Source: Pseudomonas iranensis
GTDB lineage: Bacteria > Pseudomonadota > Gammaproteobacteria > Pseudomonadales > Pseudomonadaceae
NCBI RefSeq assembly: GCF_014268585.2
Contig: NZ_CP077092.1
Location: 2,294,001-2,358,000, forward strand
Length of the DNA stretch: 64,000 bases
Direction of reading: 5' to 3'
Shown: piece by piece, positions 53,337-64,000 of the stretch
Numbering within the stretch: the stretch's first letter is position 1
How the letters are laid out: every line of letters begins with the position of its first letter
The notes under the pieces: model-generated
Database searches by the model: none
What the model saw: the letters and a program-made list of their open reading frames with translations, nothing else
What the model was told of the DNA's origin: nothing
Made by a program: the position numbers and the translations under genes

Positions 53337-53413
53337 AGGCACGTAGCTCAGTTGGTTAGAGCACCACCTTGACATGGTGGGGGTCGTTGGTTCGAGTCCA
53401 ATCGCGCCTACCA
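53337..53413 (+). tRNA. tRNA-Val (GAC), prophage attachment site
   Basis: 77 bases from AGGCACG to the encoded CCA; anticodon GAC in TTGACAT closed by CCACC/GGTGG. The acceptor stem pairs AGGCACG with CGCGCCT, leaving an A5-C68 mismatch. The integrase gene begins 110 bp beyond its 3' end, so the 3' half of this tRNA is the likely attL core. Confidence 0.93.
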
Positions 53414-53442
53414 AACAAAATCCGCTCTGCTGGGCGGTCTAG

Positions 53443-53474
53443 AAGGGCTCACCGAAAGGTGAGCCCTTTTTTGT
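53443..53474 (+). terminator. Terminator of tRNA-Val (GAC)
   Basis: AAGGGCTCACC and GGTGAGCCCTT form an 11-bp stem closed by GAAA, followed by T-rich TTTTGTT. It lies on the prophage side of the tRNA, so either the phage supplies the terminator or the att core is short. Confidence 0.9.
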
Positions 53475-53483
53475 TGTCTGCGA

Positions 53484-53515
53484 TTTGCAAAACTTTTGCA
53501 AAACTTTTGCAAAAC
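53484..53515. repeat. Three tandem 11-bp repeats, candidate integrase arm sites
   Basis: TTTGCAAAAC occurs at 53484-53493, 53495-53504 and 53506-53515, exactly one helical turn (11 bp) apart, between the tRNA terminator and the integrase stop. Lambda-type integrases bind three adjacent arm sites in the P' arm, so these are good candidates. Confidence 0.6.
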
Positions 53516-53522
53516 CCCCACC

Positions 53523-54659
53523 TCAGAACGCCAGTTCGGCACTCACCTCAACATAGTCGATCGTCTTGTCGCCGTGTCCCTCCTGGTAGTGCTTCGTCAT
53601 CTTCTCGTCCGCGTGGCCCAGCAGCGCCTGGATGTATTCCTGTGGGAAGTTCTGCTGCTCGTACAGCCACGCGCCTAAAGCGCGGATCTCGTGAAAAGTG
53701 GGGCGCTCACCGGCCGGCACATGGTCATATGCGTGCGCCGCGTCCCGCGCCTTGCTGAACTCCTTGGTCAGGTAGTCCGGCGTTACCGACGTCCAGTGAT
53801 CCTTCGCGTCGATCTGTTCCCTTCGCCGGGCCTTCGGCTTGTAGTGGATCAAATAAGGCGACACCAGCGGCGATCGCAGGCACTCACCGACGACTTCGCG
53901 CAGCGCTGCACCCATGGTGATCTTCAGGTGGACCGGGTTGTCGTAGCCCTGGGTCTTGCCCGGCGACACCGTCAAGGTGTTCTTGTCCATGTCGGCCGCC
54001 GACTTCAGCCAGGTCACGATATCCTCGCGGCGCTGAAGGCTGGCCAGTGCCAGGCGGATTGCCCGCTTCAGCCAGGGCGGCGTGGTCGCCGCGCCGATGA
54101 TCGTCTGTAGTCCTTCCAGCGTGTGCCGCTGGCGCTTCTTCTCGGCTTCCTTCTTGACCAGCGTCAGCTCGGCGCAATTGCGCTCGGCCAACCCCTTGGC
54201 CACGGCGAAAGCGAAGATCTGCACCCACAGCCCGCGATGCTTTGTGTAGGCGTTGTTGCTGAACTGGTCCAGGTATTCAGCCATGGCCAGCACATCCATC
54301 TGCCCGATCAGTCGGTCGCCGAGATCCTGCCGGTACCGCTCGAGCTTGAATTTGATCTCTTCCAGTGTCCGCGCCGCATAGCCCTTGTCCACCAGCCATT
54401 CGTCATTGAACCGCTGCAGCAGGTTGCTCACCGTTGGCAACCGGTCGCCGGTCAGCAGGGTGAGCAGCGCCCCGTCATCGACGACCAGCGCCGCTACCTT
54501 GAGGTTTGCGGCGTGTGCGAGCTTGATTGCCTCCTCAAGTGGGCGGTTGATGCTGGTCATCAAGCCGGTAATGGGATTCCGGTACCGAAAATATTTACCA
54601 TTCGGGTAAAGATTTGGCGGTAGCTTCCTGTTTTTGAGCGTGCGCGGCCGGGCAGCCAT
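53523..54659 (-). CDS. int: Lambda-type tyrosine integrase
   Basis: 378 residues. The N-terminal arm-binding domain (RKLPPNLYPNGKYFRYRNP) resembles lambda Int. The catalytic domain has Arg210 in SLQRRED, His323-x-x-Arg326 (FHEIRALG), His349 (LLGHADEK) and the nucleophile Tyr358 (TKHYQEG). The spacing of these residues follows lambda Int closely. It integrates and, with the excisionase, excises the prophage at tRNA-Val. It starts inside the last codon of the xis-like gene (TGATG). Confidence 0.93.
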   Translation of the reverse strand: MAARPRTLKNRKLPPNLYPNGKYFRYRNPITGLMTSINRPLEEAIKLAHAANLKVAALVVDDGALLTLLTGDRLPTVSNLLQRFNDEWLVDKGYAARTLEEIKFKLERYRQDLGDRLIGQMDVLAMAEYLDQFSNNAYTKHRGLWVQIFAFAVAKGLAERNCAELTLVKKEAEKKRQRHTLEGLQTIIGAATTPPWLKRAIRLALASLQRREDIVTWLKSAADMDKNTLTVSPGKTQGYDNPVHLKITMGAALREVVGECLRSPLVSPYLIHYKPKARRREQIDAKDHWTSVTPDYLTKEFSKARDAAHAYDHVPAGERPTFHEIRALGAWLYEQQNFPQEYIQALLGHADEKMTKHYQEGHGDKTIDYVEVSAELAF

Positions 54660-55178: not shown

Positions 55179-56507
55179 TTAGGCGGTGCCGAATAGATCG
55201 AGCTGATCAGATTCCGCTTGCAGCTCTTGCTGTCGGGTGACTTCGTGATCGATACGCGCCCGGGCGATCGCCGCGTACTGCTCGTCGATCTCGCACCCAA
55301 TGAACTGGAAACCTTCGCGCACGGCGGCCTTGCCTGTGCTTCCGCTGCCCATGAATGGACCGAGCGCAACGCCGCCGGCCGGTGTCACCAGGCGCAGCAG
55401 GTAGGCCATCAGGTCAGTCGGCTTCACCGTGGGATGGCTGTTGCCGTTGCGAGTACTCCACTCAGCGGTTTCGCAGTCGCGCATGGTTGCATCCTTGGCG
55501 ACAGCGGGAGCGTTCGAGCTGAGCAAACCTTCGTTTCTATCTTTGCGACTGGTCTTGGCGCAGTAGAAAAACCGCGCGGCGCTGCCGATATCGGCGTGGA
55601 ATGCACCAGGTGCCCGGGCTCGCATACCGCTGTACTTCACGGATCCGCTGAATCCGTTGGCTGTCGGTTCGTTGCCAGGCACGGGCGCCGCTGCGCCAGC
55701 TTGAGCAGGGAACAGCGCGACCACCTCCGCGCTGCCGTCATGGATCAGGTTGGCAGGCCACCGCCCAGATGCCGCTGATCCACCACCAGCGCGAAGACTG
55801 GTTACACCCTGAGCATCAGCTGGTCGAGTACCCGCGGCCATGCGATCACCAGAGCAGTTACGCGCGTAATCTGCGTCGACCACGCCGACACGGCAGGCCT
55901 CAATGTTCAGCGCCCCTGTGCCATGGTTGAGGACGTTCGCCGCGACTGTGCCGGTGAAAGGTTTCCGCGCCACGGTAATTGGCTCCATTGCTGGTTTCAG
56001 CGCAGTGCCCCAGCCTTCCCATTGGGCGGCCTCGTCGGTGGCTGGCGCGGTGATAGCGGATGTATCAATGCGACTGGAAGGGTTGTTTGCGTAGTTTCCG
56101 CCGCGCATGTCCGCAACCGGTGTTGCGGCTCTGCCGCTCTTCCGGCCAACAGTTTCACGCTCAGCACCGGCAGCCTTGTCGATCGCCTTGCTCACATCCA
56201 TTGACTTAGGAAATCCAGATCCATAGACCCATGCAATCATGTCGCGGATCTCGAAACCGGCGTCTTCAACGCGCACCGCCATGCGGTGCTGAGTGCGAGT
56301 CCCGGCGAATGCCAGCAAGTGCCCGCCGGGCTTGAGTACGCGCAAACACTCTACCCAAACCTCGGTTGCTGGAACGTCGTAGTCCCATTTCTTTCCCATG
56401 AAGGAAAGGCCGTACGGCGGGTCAGTGACGATGCTGTCGACGCTGCTGTCCGGCATTCGCCGGAGGAGCTCCAAGCAATCGCCGACCATGATGGTGTAGG
56501 CGCTCAT
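55179..56507 (-). CDS. Phage DNA N6-adenine/N4-cytosine methyltransferase (beta class)
   Basis: 442 residues. The catalytic motif DPPY (29-32, SIVTDPPYGLSFMG) comes before the SAM-binding motif PFMGSGSTG (384-392), the order of beta-class methyltransferases. HPTVKPTDLMAYLLRLV is the motif that precedes the SAM site. The long middle part (about 130-340) would hold the target-recognition region. No nuclease gene is adjacent, so it is an orphan, perhaps protecting the phage from host restriction. It starts in an ATGA overlap with the 26-codon gene upstream. Confidence 0.87.
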   Translation of the reverse strand: MSAYTIMVGDCLELLRRMPDSSVDSIVTDPPYGLSFMGKKWDYDVPATEVWVECLRVLKPGGHLLAFAGTRTQHRMAVRVEDAGFEIRDMIAWVYGSGFPKSMDVSKAIDKAAGAERETVGRKSGRAATPVADMRGGNYANNPSSRIDTSAITAPATDEAAQWEGWGTALKPAMEPITVARKPFTGTVAANVLNHGTGALNIEACRVGVVDADYARNCSGDRMAAGTRPADAQGVTSLRAGGGSAASGRWPANLIHDGSAEVVALFPAQAGAAAPVPGNEPTANGFSGSVKYSGMRARAPGAFHADIGSAARFFYCAKTSRKDRNEGLLSSNAPAVAKDATMRDCETAEWSTRNGNSHPTVKPTDLMAYLLRLVTPAGGVALGPFMGSGSTGKAAVREGFQFIGCEIDEQYAAIARARIDHEVTRQQELQAESDQLDLFGTA

Positions 56508-56584
56508 CCGATCACCGCCTTTATGGTCAGCACCAATGGAAGCCAGAAGAAGAGGGTGCAGCCGAGTAAGCACTTGGTGATCAT
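56504..56584 (-). CDS. 26-residue hydrophobic peptide
   Basis: MITKCLLGCTLFFWLPLVLT plus six further residues: almost the whole peptide is one possible membrane helix. Its start codon overlaps the stop of the upstream ASCH-like gene (ATGA), and its stop overlaps the start of the methyltransferase (ATGA), so the spacing is exactly that of a translated operon member. Too short for standard gene calling. Function unknown; membrane anchoring or a coupling role is possible. Confidence 0.55.
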   Translation of the reverse strand: MITKCLLGCTLFFWLPLVLTIKAVIG

Positions 56585-57282
56585 GGCGTCACCCGTTTGA
56601 ACTCGACGACCCAGACCCACGGGTTGGCGTTCCACGAATCGGCGCCGTTCACCGACACCCACAACTCGCGCCAGGCGTCGAACGGGTCAGTCCAGCTTCC
56701 CGGCCCCGGCTCGCTTTTGAATGGGTGAAATGCGTACTCGCCGTCGCCTTGGTGAATTCTGTTGATGCCCTCGGCAACGTAACGGCTTTCGAAGGCGGTC
56801 TCGCCTTCGCCGTCCTGCAACCGCTCGACGCGCACGTCGGTGATCTCCAGCAGGATGCGACTGGCCCACCGAGGCATGTGGATGCTCGGCCGCGATCGTC
56901 TCGGGTAGTCCCAGTGAGCCACTGATCCGTTGTATTCAGGGTCTTCGCTGCCGGCGTACAACACGGGCGCCCGGTCAGCGGCATATCGCGAAAGAGCCAC
57001 CGTGTCGCCGCGGTCCTGGTCCGCTTCCGTCGTCTCGCGCACCCACAGCCGTTCGCCGGGCTTGCCGAAGGGACAGTCTTCGATTATTTGCTGCTTGGCG
57101 TTTGGGTAAAGCCAGTGGCCGCCGCGTTTGTTTTTGAAGGTCAGCATTGGGCCGATCATGTCGACCATGCGCACTTCAGGCTGAGGCTTTACCGGTCGCC
57201 GCGTGACCGTCTTCCGGCCATCCAGAATGGCGCGCACCATCGGCGCCGAGAACAGGATTGGCCGTTCCTTGATAGCAGTCAT
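56581..57282 (-). CDS. ASCH-like phage protein
   Basis: 233 residues. The pattern RPILFSAPMVRAILDGRKTVTRRPVKPQP, CPFGKPGERLWVRET and SRILLEITDVRVERLQD is that of phage proteins with an ASCH/PUA-like fold, which bind RNA or modified nucleotides in other settings. A role in this phage is not known. It overlaps the genes on both sides by 4 bp (ATGA). Starts upstream of 57282 overlap the preceding gene too far. Confidence 0.7.
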   Translation of the reverse strand: MTAIKERPILFSAPMVRAILDGRKTVTRRPVKPQPEVRMVDMIGPMLTFKNKRGGHWLYPNAKQQIIEDCPFGKPGERLWVRETTEADQDRGDTVALSRYAADRAPVLYAGSEDPEYNGSVAHWDYPRRSRPSIHMPRWASRILLEITDVRVERLQDGEGETAFESRYVAEGINRIHQGDGEYAFHPFKSEPGPGSWTDPFDAWRELWVSVNGADSWNANPWVWVVEFKRVTP

Positions 57283-57602
57283 GGCGTCACCTCGCGGCGT
57301 GCCCACCAGCAGACTGGGCCATCGTCGGTATCGTGGATTGAAAGGCAGAACCACCCTTCGCCTTCCGGTTTATCCGGATCCCAGTAGCTGCAATCCGGAT
57401 CATGGGAGTCGAAGTAGCGCTCCGATATCTCGTCCGGCGCATCCTCAATACTTGTCATCTTCACGACCAGGTGCTGCTCGGCGAGCCACTTCTTGCACTT
57501 CTCACCATCACCTTCATCGAATGGCGGCAGTTCCGGGTGCCAGAACATGCCGTTTTCATCGCGCACAACCGGTACCGGCTGAATCAGTTTTATCTTTTCC
57601 AT
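57279..57602 (-). CDS. Hypothetical phage protein, first gene of the leftward operon
   Basis: 107 residues, acidic, no recognised family (LIQPVPVVRDENGMFWHPELPPF, DSHDPDCSYWDPDKPEGEGWF). ATG 57602 has AAGGA at a slightly long spacing, and the upstream frame runs into the intergenic promoter region, so I chose this start. It heads the ATGA-linked chain of four genes ending with the methyltransferase at 55179. Confidence 0.65.
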   Translation of the reverse strand: MEKIKLIQPVPVVRDENGMFWHPELPPFDEGDGEKCKKWLAEQHLVVKMTSIEDAPDEISERYFDSHDPDCSYWDPDKPEGEGWFCLSIHDTDDGPVCWWARREVTP

Positions 57603-59398: not shown

Positions 59399-61456
59399 TT
59401 ACGCTGCTGCGGCCCGGCGTTCAACTGCACGCCACGGGTCATTGGCTCGTGCCAGTGCAGCCATCGGCGGCGGGCTGACGCTATTGCCGCACATGTGAAC
59501 CTGCTGTGTTTTGGTGAATGGCTTGCCGTCGGCGCCGTGGCAGATGATGTAGTCGGCGGGGAAGCCTTGAGCCTTGTACAGCTCTGCCGGTTGCAGCATC
59601 CGGAGGCAGATATCGACGATCACGTAAGGCGTGCCCTTGATGGTGACGGTGACCAGTCCCAGCCGATCCTTGGTGGTGATCGTTGGCGCTGGTGCGTCGG
59701 CGGCGCTCATGTTCTCTGTTCCGTAGTAGCTGATCAGGAATGCCGCGACCCGCAGTGCGCCGGCTTCGACCTCTGGCGAGAGCTGCAGCTCGACCAGTGA
59801 GCTCTTGCCACCGCCGCCCGCCGTGATGGTTGGTGCTGGCTCGTCCACACCCTGGCCGACGCTGGCGCCGAACTGGCGTTCCAAGAAAGCAGTGACCAGT
59901 CCGTGATGAGTGCCGCCGGCGCTGATGGTATGCAGCGGATCGTCCGCGTCTCGCGCATCGCAGTTGCCGCGCAGGTGCACCCGGTTTGCCGTCACCAGCT
60001 GCTGCTGGCTTCCGGTGTTCGTCACCGTGGTCATCGGATCGTCGACGCTCTTGGCGTCGGTGGTGTTGAACCCGCCGTTCATCTGGGCCATGAATACGGT
60101 TGAGATACCCATGGCGTGAGCGGCACCGGCCGGGCGCTTGTAGTCGCCGCCGCTGGTGATGGTCGGCAGCGGTTCGTCGAGTGCCTTGCCTTCGTCCGAG
60201 AAGCGAAACTTCACCAGGTGCGCAGCGGCGAGCGCGTGTTTCACGCCGCCGGCGACCACGGTGCCCAGCGGTTGATCGAGACCGGGCACGCGTGGCACCT
60301 GACCTACGCGCTCTCCGTAGCCTGTTTGAATCAGGGTAGGGCTGATCAGCGTCAGCTCGCCGCGATTTGCGCAGGTCACCGTTGGCAGCGGGGCGTGTGG
60401 ATCGTTGACCCGGTCGCTGCCCTGATGGGTTGCTGGTGCGATGATCGGGCTCGCCATGGCGAACGATCCGCCGCGTGGCCAAGACGTCACGGTGCGCAGT
60501 GGATCATGCGCAGACTGGACACTTTCGCCGGACCAGTTCGCGATCGGCACGATGAATGGGTCAGCAGCATCAATCACGAACTTCTTCATGCCCTTGGCGA
60601 TTCGGCGCAGGGTTGCCGGTGCCAGCGGTTTTGCCCGGTCGAAAATGCTTTTGCTCAGGATGGTCCAGTCGATGCACTCGGCGGCGGTGCGCCACTTCTT
60701 TTGGCCCTTGGCCGGGTTCTTCGCGTGGGTTGGCTCTGGCCACATGATCGGCTGGCCGTCGCAACGGGCGATCATGAACAGTCGCTCGCGGCTGGTCGGC
60801 GCGCCGAAGTCGCAGGCCTTGATGACCCGCCATTCAACGGCGTAGCCCAAACGCTTCAGCTCAGCGACGAATACATCCCACGTTTGCCCGCGGCGTTTCG
60901 GGTCAGGCACCAGGAACTGCTGGTGAACCGGCACGACTTCGCCAGGCTCGGCAATGGAACCGTCCAACTTCATCACGCGGCCGGTCGACTTGCAGCGCTT
61001 GGCGATCAGTGGCCCCCATTGGAGGATCTGCTTCACGTTCTCCAAGCTGATGACGCGAGGCTTTTTCTTGCCGGCCCACTTCAGGCCGATCCACGACAGG
61101 TTCCGGATCTCACGCTTGCGCGGCTGGCCGCCGGCGGCCTGGCTGTGGTGCGTGCAGTCCGGCGACATGTGGAACCAGCCCACGGCCTTGCCGCCGCACT
61201 CGGTGTCGGGGTCACCGTCGAACACGTCGGTTGTGTAGTGCACGGCGCCAGGGTGATTCACTGTGTGCATGCTGATCGCTTGCGGGCTGTGATTCTTGGC
61301 GACATTCACCGCGCGGCCCAGGCCCATCTCCAGACCGGTACCGGCGCCGCCGCCACCGCAGAAGAAGTCGACAACGATCTCATCGTCCTGAGTGCTGAAG
61401 CCGAGTCCGTATTGAGTTTTGAAATCGAAGGGGTGTTTCTTCTGTTGTGCGGACAT
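59399..61456 (-). CDS. Phage C5-cytosine DNA methyltransferase with repeated target region
   Basis: 685 residues, long for the family. Motif I is VVDFFCGGGGAGTGLEMGLG (28-47); the catalytic loop is MSPDCTHHSQ with Cys101 in place of the usual PPC; motif VI is SLENV (137-141), motif VIII TSRERLF (221-227), motif IX RMLQPAELYKAQGFP (619-633) and motif X GNSV (657-660). Between VIII and IX, residues 318-597 hold eight copies of a D-x-P-x-x-T-[IV]-[ST] motif. GAGGATACC precedes ATG 61456. It is an orphan enzyme, presumably masking phage DNA from restriction. Confidence 0.85.
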   Translation of the reverse strand: MSAQQKKHPFDFKTQYGLGFSTQDDEIVVDFFCGGGGAGTGLEMGLGRAVNVAKNHSPQAISMHTVNHPGAVHYTTDVFDGDPDTECGGKAVGWFHMSPDCTHHSQAAGGQPRKREIRNLSWIGLKWAGKKKPRVISLENVKQILQWGPLIAKRCKSTGRVMKLDGSIAEPGEVVPVHQQFLVPDPKRRGQTWDVFVAELKRLGYAVEWRVIKACDFGAPTSRERLFMIARCDGQPIMWPEPTHAKNPAKGQKKWRTAAECIDWTILSKSIFDRAKPLAPATLRRIAKGMKKFVIDAADPFIVPIANWSGESVQSAHDPLRTVTSWPRGGSFAMASPIIAPATHQGSDRVNDPHAPLPTVTCANRGELTLISPTLIQTGYGERVGQVPRVPGLDQPLGTVVAGGVKHALAAAHLVKFRFSDEGKALDEPLPTITSGGDYKRPAGAAHAMGISTVFMAQMNGGFNTTDAKSVDDPMTTVTNTGSQQQLVTANRVHLRGNCDARDADDPLHTISAGGTHHGLVTAFLERQFGASVGQGVDEPAPTITAGGGGKSSLVELQLSPEVEAGALRVAAFLISYYGTENMSAADAPAPTITTKDRLGLVTVTIKGTPYVIVDICLRMLQPAELYKAQGFPADYIICHGADGKPFTKTQQVHMCGNSVSPPPMAALARANDPWRAVERRAAAA

Positions 61457-61500: not shown

Positions 61501-62217
61501 ATGGCGAAACAAGAATTTATCGATTCGATTAATCCTGCTGAGGCTAAAAAGGTAGGAAGAATTGACGCGGTGCTGCGGTCTGGTATTGCAATCCTTGTGA
61601 TAGCTTTGGTGATATCCGGCATATTTTATTTCTGGGTGTTCAGATACGGATTGTCTAGTAATCCCGATAACTGGTCCGCATTTGGCTCTTTCTTTGGAGG
61701 TATCTTCGGACCATTGATTTCCGCTGTTACGCTTGTCGCGCTATTGAAGACTATAAGTCTTCAGAGGGAGGTGATCGATACTCAGCGTGAAGAGTATCGA
61801 AAGTTGCAGAAGCAACAAGAGTTCTCGCTTTCAGAGCAGCAACAGCAGACTGAGCTTGCTCGCATGGCTCTGATGAGTGCGAGGGTTGCAGACTATCGTG
61901 CTGGGATTCTTCAGATGCTAGAACAGCAATGTAATTATCAGCACAGCGCCGCTAATGCCTACAGTGGCAGGATTAATACATCCTTATCAATGCTTGGGCC
62001 TCTGGCTAAAATGGAAGACTCTCCTGAAAATATTAAGGCAGTGAGTGATTTAAAGGTGCTTGCAGAGCGGATGGGTGAAAGCGAAAAAAGCGCGCAAGAA
62101 ATAAGTAAGCTGTCGATGAGACTCGCAATTAAAGAGTTTGAAACTGTCGATGAGTTAAAATCTTATATTGAAGTGCATATTTCAAAAATAGTCTCTCAGC
62201 GCGAATTAACAAAGTAA
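61501..62217 (+). CDS. Membrane-anchored coiled-coil protein, abortive-infection-like
   Basis: 238 residues. Two membrane helices (about 25-47 and 60-85) enclose SSNPDNWSAFGSFFGGIFG, followed by a Gln-rich coiled coil (DTQREEYRKLQKQQEFSLSE). This N-terminal layout resembles the putative phage abortive infection (PutAbiC) family as I remember it. It is AT-richer than its neighbours and runs opposite to the phage operon, as cargo genes often do. AAAGG before ATG 61501. Superinfection exclusion or defence is a plausible but untested role. Confidence 0.6.
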   Translation: MAKQEFIDSINPAEAKKVGRIDAVLRSGIAILVIALVISGIFYFWVFRYGLSSNPDNWSAFGSFFGGIFGPLISAVTLVALLKTISLQREVIDTQREEYRKLQKQQEFSLSEQQQQTELARMALMSARVADYRAGILQMLEQQCNYQHSAANAYSGRINTSLSMLGPLAKMEDSPENIKAVSDLKVLAERMGESEKSAQEISKLSMRLAIKEFETVDELKSYIEVHISKIVSQRELTK

Positions 62218-62415
62218 ATGATCGTCGCCGACGCAAATACACCTGACTGGTGACACGTCTCACGATATCTAGGGGAGACTGTGCTGTTTTAGCGGACGAT
62301 TAGTGAGTCGGCGATGGGCGGCCTTGCGAGCACATTGGCGACTAGGCGCCACATTAGCTGGGACATTAATAGCCTCGGCGTTATATTGAGAGATGACTTC
62401 ACAAAGGGGATAGGG

Positions 62416-63072
62416 ATGTCGATTTGTTTTGCGATCACGGATACGGACTGGGCGCTTACGAAGGATGTCTTCAGCGTAATTGGTACAGTGGTAAGCGCGG
62501 TGGGCGTAGCAGTGGCCGGTTGGGTTGGTTTCTCCGGTCTAGCGACATGGCGCAGGCAGAACAAAGGAACAGCAGATCATGACCTCGCCAGGCGTCTGTT
62601 GATGGATCTCTATCGGCTACGCGATGGTATCAGCCACGTTCGCAACCCTGTCATGCTTGGGAATGAGGGCGCCACAGGCGAGGAAGAGCCTCAGAACCTC
62701 AATTTCCAGGAGAGAAACTACAGAAACACAGCGCGCGCCTATCAGAGTCGTTTTGCGCCGATAGGCGAGGTTCGGGCACGTATTAGCACCTCTCTGTTAG
62801 AGAGCGAAGCGGTCTGGGGTAGAGAATTGAAATTCCGCTTCGATCCAATCTTTAATCTCCAGCATGAACTGTGGATCAACGTTAACGCGTACGTGACATC
62901 GATCAATCCGGATGAAACAGAAAGCCGATCCCGCTCGTATCAAAAGATTCTTGCTGAGAGAAGGGAAGTTTTGTATGAAATGCCGCCAGGAATGGATGAT
63001 GATTTCCGAGATGAATTGGATGCGGCTCTTGCTCTTGTCGAAGACTATCTAAGACCCAAACTCATAAGGTAA
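62416..63072 (+). CDS. Membrane-anchored protein of unknown function
   Basis: 218 residues. One hydrophobic segment (about 18-43: VFSVIGTVVSAVGVAVAGWV) is followed by a soluble helical domain starting WRRQNKGTADHDLARRLLMDLYRLRD. The arrangement WRRQ-x-K-G-x-x-D after a membrane helix recurs in uncharacterised accessory proteins of enterobacteria and pseudomonads. ATG 62416 has AGGGGATAGGG upstream; a longer frame from 62314 lacks a good site. It shares orientation with the gene at 61501 and abuts the convergent PP-loop gene (1-bp gap). Confidence 0.6.
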   Translation: MSICFAITDTDWALTKDVFSVIGTVVSAVGVAVAGWVGFSGLATWRRQNKGTADHDLARRLLMDLYRLRDGISHVRNPVMLGNEGATGEEEPQNLNFQERNYRNTARAYQSRFAPIGEVRARISTSLLESEAVWGRELKFRFDPIFNLQHELWINVNAYVTSINPDETESRSRSYQKILAERREVLYEMPPGMDDDFRDELDAALALVEDYLRPKLIR

Positions 63073-63073
63073 G

Positions 63074-64000
63074 TCACTCGCAGAGCCCGTAGGCTGAAGA
63101 GCAACTGTTCTGGCTGTCAGAGCGTGCAATTAGGTCAACCATGTCGAACTGGCGGCCACCGCGCGCGGTGTTGCTCCAATCGACTATTCGGTCAATGCCG
63201 TGTGTGACGGCGCTGACCTTGTCATCCGATCGTACGGTAGGGTCGGTGACGGTAGCGAAGAACGTAGCCGCTCCGCGCTTGCTGGCGATGCTCACCAGTC
63301 TCTCCCACTCGCGCACCCGGTCAACTTCCGCTGGCCACCTGGCCGCAATCTGCCGCAGTTCGTCCTTCGCGCACATTATGCAGGGCATGCAGCCAACGCG
63401 ATTGCAGCCTTGCAAGTACAACGGGTTCGGCTTGATACCAGCCGCGCGGTGAGCTTCGAACACTGAGTCGACGGTCCATTTCAGGATCGGCCGGTAGTTG
63501 AACAGGCCGCCTCCGACCTCATCGCACTCTGGTAAGTACTTGCGGGCCGGCGACTCATCAGCCCGCACGCCTTGCCAGGACAGCAGCATGTTCTCGCCGT
63601 CCATAAGTGGCAGGTACACCTGCTCGATGATGGGGTTGCGCTTCAGTTCATCGGTGCAGAAGCGGGCTTTGGTGCTCGGGAATCGGCCTTTCCATAAGCA
63701 CAAGTCCAGGAACGGATTACCGGTTGGGTGCAGGACTTGCAGAGCGCCAAGAACCACAGATTCCGGCACACCCTTTTCGCGCCATTTCGTTTCGATGAAT
63801 TTGCGCTTGCCGGCGATCTGCTTGGCGAAGTCTGCCTTCACCCACCGGATGGGTACGCCAGTGGCTTCGGCCAGGTAGTGGATGTAGTCGTACGTTTCTG
63901 GATGCTCATGCCCGGTATCAGCCACTACTGCGCTGAGGTTCGGCACCTCCAGCTCGCGAGCGACCAGCAATGTAGCCGTGCTATCTTTACCGCCGCTCAT
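63074..64000 (-). CDS. PAPS-reductase-like PP-loop protein, 5' part beyond the window
   Basis: 308 codons visible. The SGGKDS PP-loop for ATP lies at the very edge, so the true start is likely to the right of 64000. Cysteines in ARFCTDELK (115) and GCNRVGCMPCIMC (199, 204, 207, 210) could hold an iron-sulfur cluster, as in CysH and DndC relatives. The C-terminus NSCSSAYGLCE adds two more Cys. Phage-encoded PAPS-reductase-like proteins are common in Pseudomonas phages; sulfur modification of DNA or tRNA, or sulfate reduction, are candidate roles. Confidence 0.75.
   Translation of the reverse strand: MSGGKDSTATLLVARELEVPNLSAVVADTGHEHPETYDYIHYLAEATGVPIRWVKADFAKQIAGKRKFIETKWREKGVPESVVLGALQVLHPTGNPFLDLCLWKGRFPSTKARFCTDELKRNPIIEQVYLPLMDGENMLLSWQGVRADESPARKYLPECDEVGGGLFNYRPILKWTVDSVFEAHRAAGIKPNPLYLQGCNRVGCMPCIMCAKDELRQIAARWPAEVDRVREWERLVSIASKRGAATFFATVTDPTVRSDDKVSAVTHGIDRIVDWSNTARGGRQFDMVDLIARSDSQNSCSSAYGLCE

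What the first reader, a model, noticed from the sequence alone, without database searches (positions are those of the whole stretch)
59399..61456. C5 methyltransferase with an eight-copy D-x-P-x-x-T-I-T array in its target-recognition region
In ordinary C5-cytosine methyltransferases a single P-T-I-T-like motif lies shortly before motif IX. Here eight related motifs are spaced 33-49 residues apart: DPLRTVTS (318), DPHAPLPTVTC (352), DQPLGTVVAGG (394), DEPLPTITSGG (427), DDPMTTVTNTG (472), DDPLHTISAGG (505), DEPAPTITAGG (538) and DAPAPTITT (587). This suggests the target domain grew by duplication of a 33-49-residue unit, perhaps giving several recognition modules on one catalytic core, as in multispecific phage methyltransferases.
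Basis: partly seen in the sequence, partly recalled or inferred. Interest (0 to 1): 0.72.

Follow-up and report, generated by a model that had tools for sequence, protein, structure and literature searches.

The report
Swappable recognition-module array on phage methyltransferase
A prophage DNA-methylating enzyme carries eight different modules of a kind that relatives hold in varying numbers, exchange like cassettes and practically never repeat, so each module likely reads its own DNA site and together they would shield the phage from many restriction enzymes.

Summary
In detail: the 685-residue C5-cytosine methyltransferase at 59399-61456 (-) has eight D-x-P-x-x-T-[IV]-like motifs at the stated places, far beyond chance, each heading a ~32-residue module. 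The gene lies in a prophage early region. The family is very large and eight modules is usual; 517 proteins checked carry 2 to 10. The motif is the TL motif of C5 target-recognition domains (TRDs). Modules fall into types exchanged as units: in 185 otherwise similar proteins slot 3 is one of five unlike types. Arrays are non-redundant: 0 of 516 hold two modules 60% or more identical, so they change by taking different cassettes from a shared pool, not by local duplication. Relatives reported in print as having 'relaxed specificity' (Aeromonas ARM81 phages) carry five modules each. Best reading: a multispecific anti-restriction methylase, a larger, cassette-exchanging counterpart of the Bacillus SPR/SPbeta enzymes. 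That each module reads its own site is inferred: both structure predictions failed over the array, and no methylome was available.

The parts
59399..61456 (-). C5-cytosine DNA methyltransferase gene, 685 aa
   Evidence: Pfam PF00145 E 2.3e-24, 86.9 bits against a cut-off of 22; PHROG 23072 and 116 DNA methyltransferase
60569..61456 (-). Catalytic N-terminal core, residues 1-296: motif I DFFCGGGG 30-37, motif IV SPDCTHHS 98-105 with Cys101, motif VI LENV 138-141, motif VIII TSRERLFMIA 221-230 (motif names recalled)
   Evidence: positions; C101, E139, V141, R223, R225 invariant in all 98 rows
60437..60535 (-). Module 1 (type E), residues 308-340, T322; type E is first wherever it occurs in the 99 architectures
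60329..60424 (-). Module 2 (type A), residues 345-376, T359
60212..60298 (-). Module 3 (type G), residues 387-415, T399; slot 3 holds G, H, K, U or L in 185 proteins of otherwise the same architecture
60119..60205 (-). Module 4 (type I), residues 418-446, T432
59984..60070 (-). Module 5 (type B), residues 463-491, T477
59879..59971 (-). Module 6 (type D), residues 496-526, T510
59777..59872 (-). Module 7 (type F), residues 529-560, T543
   Evidence: aligned by BLASTP with the first TL motif of the SPbeta enzyme
59636..59725 (-). Module 8 (type C), residues 578-607, T592, 27 residues before motif IX: the place of the TL motif in an ordinary enzyme
   Evidence: DrmMII profile matches residues 569-669
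59402..59635 (-). Motif IX (RMLQPAELYKAQGFP, 619-633), motif X (GNSVSPP, 657-663) and C-terminus
53337..53413 (+). tRNA-Val(gac), likely attachment site of the prophage
   Evidence: integrase lies next to it; no second copy found
53523..54659 (-). Phage integrase (tyrosine recombinase) with lambda-type arm-binding domain
   Evidence: PF00589 2.5e-13, PF09003 5e-11
55179..56573 (-). N4/N6-type DNA methyltransferase of the same prophage
   Evidence: PF01555 1.4e-28; phrog_67

Best explanation
A prophage C5-cytosine methyltransferase carries, between catalytic motifs VIII and IX, eight different exchangeable modules of about 32 residues, each predicted to be a target-recognition unit that would direct methylation of its own short DNA site, so that one enzyme would likely protect phage DNA from many restriction enzymes. 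Shown: the core has the C5 motifs; each module has the centre of a TL motif (Pro at -3, Thr at 0, Ile or Val at +1); modules are swapped and lost as whole units in register; arrays hold practically no repeated type; positions after the TL motif are conserved within a type and differ between types; the gene lies in a prophage early region. Inferred: by analogy with M.HhaI/M.HaeIII and the Bacillus enzymes, the Thr of whichever module is engaged docks by the flipped cytosine while its flanks read the neighbouring bases; modules take turns on one catalytic core; expression follows induction; the gain is escape from restriction; and cassette exchange between phages changes the set of protected sites. 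How modules take turns is unknown.
For: TL motif: PMC2413257 (passages; section 6) gives a consensus with the centre P(STCA)PT(ILV)(TASV), 10-50 residues from motif IX, and DNA-contact trimers at -13..-11 and +5..+7; T592 lies 27 residues before motif IX. Of 7 control proteins scanned with the module profile, the ordinary enzymes L105, L106, L107 and L109 match, weakly (6.5-10 bits), at their TL motif. BLASTP aligns modules 7-8 with the two TL motifs of the SPbeta enzyme, spaced 47 there and 49 here. Swapping: of 397 proteins typed, 185 read E-A-?-I-B-D-F-C; slot 3 is G 82, H 66, K 18, U 17, L 2; in 11264 pairs with different slot-3 types identity is 0.28 at slot 3 (low by construction of the types) and 0.87-0.95 in the other seven modules. 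In DNA, five such pairs drop to 0.20-0.43 in the 20-codon window at codon 381 (and to 0.36-0.40 at 401 in three of them), with neighbouring windows mostly 0.8-1.0. In-register loss: P0136 and P0161 fit the F116-type protein P0123 with single deletions of 77 and 110 aa (2 and 3 modules) joined at D-[DE]-P, 22 mismatches each over 610 and 577 aa. Non-redundancy: 0 of 516 arrays with a pair at 60% identity, 3 of 516 at 50%; in 48 core-divergent representatives 1 with a 50% pair against 12.8 (sd 2.7, min 6 in 300 deals) when modules are dealt within slots. Conservation: in 1269 pairs of like modules (50-90% identical) from different representatives the C-TL trimer is 0.80, the linker (-10..-4) 0.41; in 920 sister pairs the C-TL trimer is 0.13. 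Function of relatives: ARM81ld_p31 and ARM81mr_p29, stated to be m5C enzymes with relaxed specificity (PMC5537653 section 16), carry 5 modules each; [quoted passage not shown]
Against: No methylome or protection test of this gene was available. Both AlphaFold2 models are uninformative over the array, so no separate TRD folds are shown. Only modules 7 and 8 (PAPTIT) fit the printed core of the TL consensus to the letter; the other six keep P(-3), T(0) and I/V(+1) but depart at -2 or -1. The module profile does not match the SPbeta TRDs significantly (E 0.6) and the cores are only distantly alike. The N-TL trimer is no better conserved within types (0.643) than other positions (0.658). 'Relaxed specificity' in relatives was seen as partial protection and fits a loose enzyme too; the Paracoccus enzymes did not protect against R.PamI of a plasmid in the same strain, and one relative, Phi2LM21_p23, gave no protection in E. 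coli. Types keep a partial order (E first, C last; I mostly before B), which free, independent modules would not need.
Confidence: 0.7

Rival explanations
1. A relaxed, nearly non-specific enzyme: the modules act together as an extended DNA-holding surface or solenoid and none has a target of its own; broad methylation comes from loose recognition (for example of CC).
For: Relatives are described as having relaxed specificity with partial protection of many sites, and as modifying at least one cytosine of CC. Prophages carry non-specific m6A enzymes, M.CsaIII and M.BceSVII (PMC3526280 passages). First and last modules are fixed and others keep a partial order.
Against: A structural repeat should tolerate or favour copies of one unit; arrays avoid repeats (1 of 48 against 12.8 expected). 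Type-specific conservation of the C-TL positions (0.80 in like modules against 0.13 between sisters) and whole-type replacement at slot 3 are not expected of a generic holding surface.
Confidence: 0.2
2. An ordinary single-site enzyme: only the last module works as TRD and the rest are spacer or decayed repeats.
For: The last module sits where an ordinary TL motif sits (27 residues before motif IX) and fits the printed consensus; module number varies from 2 to 10.
Against: Pro -3 and Thr 0 are the commonest residue in all 19 large types, at mean within-type frequencies of 0.97 and 0.99; interior modules other than slot 3 keep 0.87-0.95 identity across 185 proteins, as high as the last one (0.88-0.89); ordinary C5 enzymes of about 330-360 aa (L104-L107, L109) do without the extra residues.
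Confidence: 0.06
3. The modules bind proteins (host restriction enzymes or DNA-bound factors) rather than DNA, and vary as in an arms race.
For: Cassette-like exchange is also known in proteins that face variable partners (general knowledge; not tested).
Against: Each module is centred on the TL motif, which in solved C5 enzymes contacts DNA, and lies where TRDs lie.
Confidence: 0.04

Closest known systems
Multispecific C5-methyltransferases of Bacillus phages (SPR, phi3T, SPbeta, H2; related M.phiBssHII)
   Same: Temperate-phage orphan enzyme; tandem TL-bearing modules (about 40 residues each, recalled) between motifs VIII and IX on one core (SPbeta enzyme read here: TL threonines at 315 and 362); proposed role in protecting phage DNA from many restriction enzymes (PMC5923457, PMC12707154 passages).
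   Different: SPbeta has 2 TL motifs, here 8 (2-10 in 517 proteins); core only distantly related; motif IV reads SPDCTHHS; the relatives typed are nearly all from Gram-negative hosts; module types are exchanged widely. In Bacillus several recognition sequences per enzyme are established (PMC8936443 passages); here they are not.
Large (~700 aa) prophage m5C enzymes with 'relaxed specificity' (Paracoccus aminophilus JCM7686_0772/_2655; Aeromonas ARM81mr_p29, ARM81ld_p31; Phi2LM21_p23)
   Same: Same family: ARM81 enzymes align with the query (37% over a 710-column alignment for ARM81mr_p29; 36-37% in two segments for ARM81ld_p31) and carry 5 modules each; Rhizobium phage RR1-A, named in that paper among the homologs, carries 9.
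   Different: Those papers describe the specificity as relaxed; the passages and sections read do not mention a module array. The Paracoccus and Phi2LM21 sequences were not obtained here.
Type I HsdS subunits
   Same: Exchange of recognition domains changes the site (recalled).
   Different: Separate subunit with 2 large domains per protein (recalled); here many small modules within the catalytic chain.
Non-specific prophage m6A methyltransferases (M.CsaIII, M.BceSVII, M.EcoGII)
   Same: Prophage-borne orphan enzymes, suggested to protect phage DNA.
   Different: They methylate adenine; breadth by lack of specificity rather than by many modules.

Membership tests
C5-cytosine DNA methyltransferase (PF00145) | Conserved motifs I, IV with catalytic Cys, VI ENV, VIII, IX, X in order | tested here: met
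   Motif IV is SPDCTHHS rather than PCQ; score for NCBIfam TIGR00675 is below its cut-off (67.8 against 100.65)
Multispecific phage C5-methyltransferase (Bacillus SPR/SPbeta type) | Several tandem TL-bearing modules between motifs VIII and IX | tested here: met
   only modules 7 and 8 fit the printed TL core to the letter
Multispecific phage C5-methyltransferase (Bacillus SPR/SPbeta type) | Encoded by a temperate phage without a partner endonuclease | tested here: met
   integrase, exonuclease, RecT, CI-like repressor, anti-repressor, O-like protein, spanin around it. Of seven neighbouring window ORFs scanned against PADLOC, one matches methyltransferases, one SspD/BrxP/DndC, one a model of unknown function (E 0.005), four nothing; no endonuclease. 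Other prophage genes were not all scanned
Multispecific phage C5-methyltransferase (Bacillus SPR/SPbeta type) | Each module confers methylation of a distinct sequence | not testable with these tools
   needs a methylome; indirect support
Multispecific phage C5-methyltransferase (Bacillus SPR/SPbeta type) | Shared descent with the Bacillus enzymes beyond the general C5 core | tested here: inconclusive
   BLASTP segments E 1e-4 and 0.002 only; module profile E 0.6 on SPbeta
Relaxed-specificity ~700-aa prophage m5C enzymes | Sequence family of ARM81/RR1-A enzymes with module arrays | tested here: met
Relaxed-specificity ~700-aa prophage m5C enzymes | Methylation at many different sites | not testable with these tools
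   reported for relatives, unknown for this gene

The most novel reading that the evidence does not exclude
Phages of many bacteria, and perhaps of haloarchaea, share a common pool of nearly a hundred small recognition cassettes, each reading its own short cytosine site, and string 2 to 10 different ones on one catalytic core; exchange of single cassettes re-programmes which restriction enzymes a phage is immune to, and the published 'relaxed specificity' of these enzymes is the sum of their discrete cassettes. The cassette-to-site table could be read out by comparing natural variants.
Probability: 0.5. Interest if true: 0.78.

Novelty: new variant of a known kind. Interest (0 to 1): 0.66.

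Why it matters
Multispecific methylases were worked out in Bacillus phages in the 1980s-90s, with a few modules each. If the reading holds, a very common phage enzyme, mostly labelled just 'DNA cytosine methyltransferase' or, in the few tested, 'relaxed specificity', is a modular reader with exchangeable parts. It gives a large natural set of closely similar pairs that differ by one module, so the question of how many recognition units share one catalytic core, and a module-to-site table, become directly testable by methyl-seq. It would also help to explain how temperate phages keep pace with the variety of host restriction systems.

Tried and rejected
Nothing is claimed about the fold of a module.

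Growth by local duplication: rejected as the recent process. One search counted repeated types under independence of slots (0 of 99 architectures repeat a named type), but an inserted module shifts slot numbers, so its expected values are inflated; the slot-aware deal replaces it.

An att repeat was sought and not found: no shared stretch of 18 bases or more between 53337-53530 and the next 60 kb.

Carboxymethyl chemistry (CmoX, PMC12783734, passages) was considered because CmoX is a phage C5 enzyme and the top Foldseek hit (8yf3); its key Arg was not compared, and no call here tests it.

Counting methods: regular-expression parsing failed on 24 of 397 proteins, so counts rest on the profile. 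The profile undercounts very divergent arrays (Caulobacter phage Sansa, L121: 3, 7 by regular expression, about 11 by eye), so 2-10 is a minimum range. The census uses every frame found; before these rows were dropped: L103-L110 (other C5 enzymes), L096 and L099 (fragments), L154, L168, L178, L192 (frames cut or badly parsed), the SPbeta protein, and identical sequences. Two copies that look frameshifted near the C-terminus (P0150, P0170) were left in as they are and not mended. The sample leans to Pseudomonas because searches list the nearest hits; 48 representatives (under half of the 4-letter words of the first 300 residues shared, larger arrays chosen first) were used to offset this.

Full report
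What is there. It is a C5-cytosine methyltransferase by Pfam (PF00145, 86.9 bits, cut-off 22) and PHROGs. Motif I is at 30-37, motif IV with Cys101 at 98-105, ENV at 139-141, motif VIII at 221-230, motif IX at 619-633 and motif X at 657-663 (motif names recalled); C101, E139, V141, R223 and R225 are invariant in a 98-row alignment. Residues 308-607, between motifs VIII and IX, hold the eight modules.

The repeat is not chance. Self-comparison gives 16 peaks against a shuffle mean of 0.11 and maximum of 2 in 200. A profile seeded with the eight stretches and trained on relatives finds all eight at E <= 1e-9, 32 positions long, with TL threonines spaced 33-49.

Surroundings. The gene lies 4.7 kb from an integrase that sits beside tRNA-Val. 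Of ten ORFs scanned in the 20 kb beyond the window, matches include an exonuclease, a RecT-like protein, a CI-like repressor, an anti-repressor, an O-like replication protein and an Rz-like spanin. It is thus in the early region of a lambdoid prophage. The nearest named relatives are Pseudomonas, so the host is likely a Pseudomonas. An N4/N6-type methyltransferase lies 2.8 kb away in the same direction. In phage F116 the homologous gene is flanked by two adenine methyltransferase genes.

How common. 7900 of 7997 scored candidates are homologs at E <= 0.001 (arrays were not checked in all of these). 308 of 50,697 phage records and 252 of 72,556 plasmid records match; many of the phage records are of actinobacterial phages at 25-30% identity, whose arrays were not examined. 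69 of 299 genomes drawn over the phylum match, many of them only at the general C5 level. By profile, 79 genome loci carry 4 (1), 5 (3), 6 (6), 7 (20), 8 (44) or 9 (5) modules, and the 80 nearest viral contigs 7 (3), 8 (74) or 9 (3). Over 517 different proteins, the window's included, the range is 2-10: 1, 16, 29, 49, 29, 108, 240, 42 and 3 proteins in order. The profile misses divergent modules, so these are minimum numbers.

What a module is. PMC2413257 (passages; [quoted passage not shown] Every module here keeps P(-3), T(0) and I or V(+1); only modules 7 and 8 (PAPTIT) fit the printed centre to the letter. Seven control proteins were scanned with the module profile: L105 matches at its TL motif (10.0 bits, with a second match of 0.4 bits elsewhere); L106, L107 and L109, alike at this spot, match once at theirs (6.5 bits each); SPbeta and L104 are not significant; L103 gives nothing. 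The SPbeta enzyme has two TL motifs, T315 and T362, 47 apart, and BLASTP lays modules 7 and 8 over them in one alignment at E 0.002.

Modules are exchanged as units. Clustering 1337 distinct 34-residue windows from 397 proteins gives 96 types and 99 architectures; the window protein reads E-A-G-I-B-D-F-C. In 185 proteins of the form E-A-?-I-B-D-F-C the third module is G (82), H (66), K (18), U (17) or L (2). For the 11264 pairs with different third types, identity is 0.28 there and 0.92, 0.87, 0.95, 0.94, 0.92, 0.90, 0.89 in the others; for the 5756 pairs with the same type it is 0.89 there. The low value at slot 3 follows from how types are defined; the telling part is that everything around it stays alike. 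In the DNA of five pairs, the closest for each of five type combinations among 94 loci, identity drops to 0.20-0.43 in the 20-codon window at 381 (and to 0.36-0.40 at 401 in three of them), with neighbouring windows mostly 0.8-1.0; a second variable spot lies near codon 161 in three of the five, and the last window is low in all five. Two proteins named P. aeruginosa fit the F116-type protein with single clean deletions of 77 and 110 aa, that is two and three modules, joined in register at D-[DE]-P, with 22 mismatches each. A type can cross wide distances: a module of Paracoccus phage Pyei1 is 65% identical to module 3 of the window protein although the proteins are 34% identical overall (the best case among four proteins).

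Arrays are sets, not repeats. Of 516 proteins with three or more modules none has two that are 60% or more identical, and 3 have two at 50%. In 48 proteins with divergent cores, 304 of 308 modules find a better match in another protein (mean 0.70) than among their sisters (mean 0.28). One of the 48 has a 50% pair; dealing modules at random gives 18.7 (min 12 of 200 deals), and dealing them only within the same slot gives 12.8, sd 2.7, min 6, none of 300 as low as 1. A structural repeat has no reason to avoid copies; a recognition module does, since a second copy adds no new site. This is the strongest argument found for one module, one target. It is indirect.

Conservation points the same way, in part. 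Over 19 large types only Pro(-3) and Thr(0) are shared by all. In 1269 pairs of like modules (50-90% identical) from different representatives, identity is 0.80 at the C-TL contact positions, 0.41 in the linker -10..-4 and 0.66 at the remaining positions; the N-TL trimer is 0.64, no better than those. Between 920 pairs of sisters the C-TL positions are 0.13, like other positions. So the contact positions after the TL motif are fixed within a type and different between types, while the prediction for the N-TL trimer is not borne out.

What relatives do. [quoted passage not shown] Here ARM81ld_p31 and ARM81mr_p29 carry five modules each, RR1-A nine and Paracoccus phage Pyei1 eight. [quoted passage not shown] coli, but not against R.PamI. 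A list of several distinct sites is what a multi-module enzyme would give, and also what a loose one might. Phi2LM21_p23 gave no protection in E. coli. The Paracoccus and Phi2LM21 sequences were not obtained here.

Mechanism and its limits. The most likely working is that of the Bacillus multispecific enzymes: one catalytic core, several small TRDs (PMC8936443 and PMC5923457 passages; [quoted passage not shown] For this family the per-module targets, the turn-taking and the protection of phage DNA are inferred.

In print. Ten searches of the held library were used. They turned up the Bacillus multispecific enzymes (by citation and passage), reviews and, through a citation in one of them, the relaxed-specificity prophage enzymes, but in the listings and passages seen no description of variable, non-redundant, exchanging module arrays in this family. 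The library lacks most subscription papers, among them the primary Bacillus work (two look-ups failed) and the ARM81 paper (not looked up), which were not read.

Verdict. Observation confirmed; interpretation right about modules and, in kind, about multispecificity, wrong about duplication as the way the array changes, and unaware that eight modules is normal in a very large family. New variant of a known kind.

Noticed in passing
63074-64000 (-): PAPS-reductase-like gene (PF01507) with matches to SspD, BrxP and DndC profiles. A gene annotated as PAPS reductase lies directly beside the C5 methyltransferase in Escherichia phage Eeyore (L119) and Rhizobium phage RR1-A (L209), so the pairing may be more than chance; in the window two opposite-strand ORFs lie between them.
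   Followed up: partly
55179-56573 (-): N4/N6-type DNA methyltransferase in the same prophage; in phage F116 (L111) the homologous C5 gene is flanked by two adenine methyltransferase genes.
   Followed up: partly
56581-57354 (-): phrog_874 protein of unknown function; a gene near the C5 methyltransferase of phage Epa33 (L112) is noted as an ASCH-domain protein. Whether the two are related was not tested.
   Followed up: no
61501-62217 (+) and 62314-63072 (+): Two ORFs on the opposite strand inside the leftward early region, with only modest PHROG matches to families of unknown function and no PADLOC match; possibly cargo genes with their own promoter.
   Followed up: no
L016/L032, L125/L130, L006/L069 near codon 161 of the gene: A second sharply variable spot in otherwise similar genes, between motifs VI and VIII of the catalytic core (DNA identity 0.28-0.54 in 3 of 5 pairs).
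   Followed up: no
53337-53413 and L204-L206: Integrase lies beside tRNA-Val, but no repeat of 18 bases or more of that end was found in the next 60 kb, so the right end of the prophage is not fixed.
   Followed up: partly
L125 and L130: One strain, Pseudomonas sp. TNT3, carries two such genes that differ in the third module (types G and U).
   Followed up: no
P0150, P0170: Copies of the F116-type gene whose C-terminal part no longer aligns, as after a frameshift, so the gene may also decay in some prophages.
   Followed up: no
L120 (Halobacterium phage phiH, dcm5): A haloarchaeal virus enzyme has 2 modules by profile and looks by eye to have more, which would take the family across domains.
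   Followed up: partly
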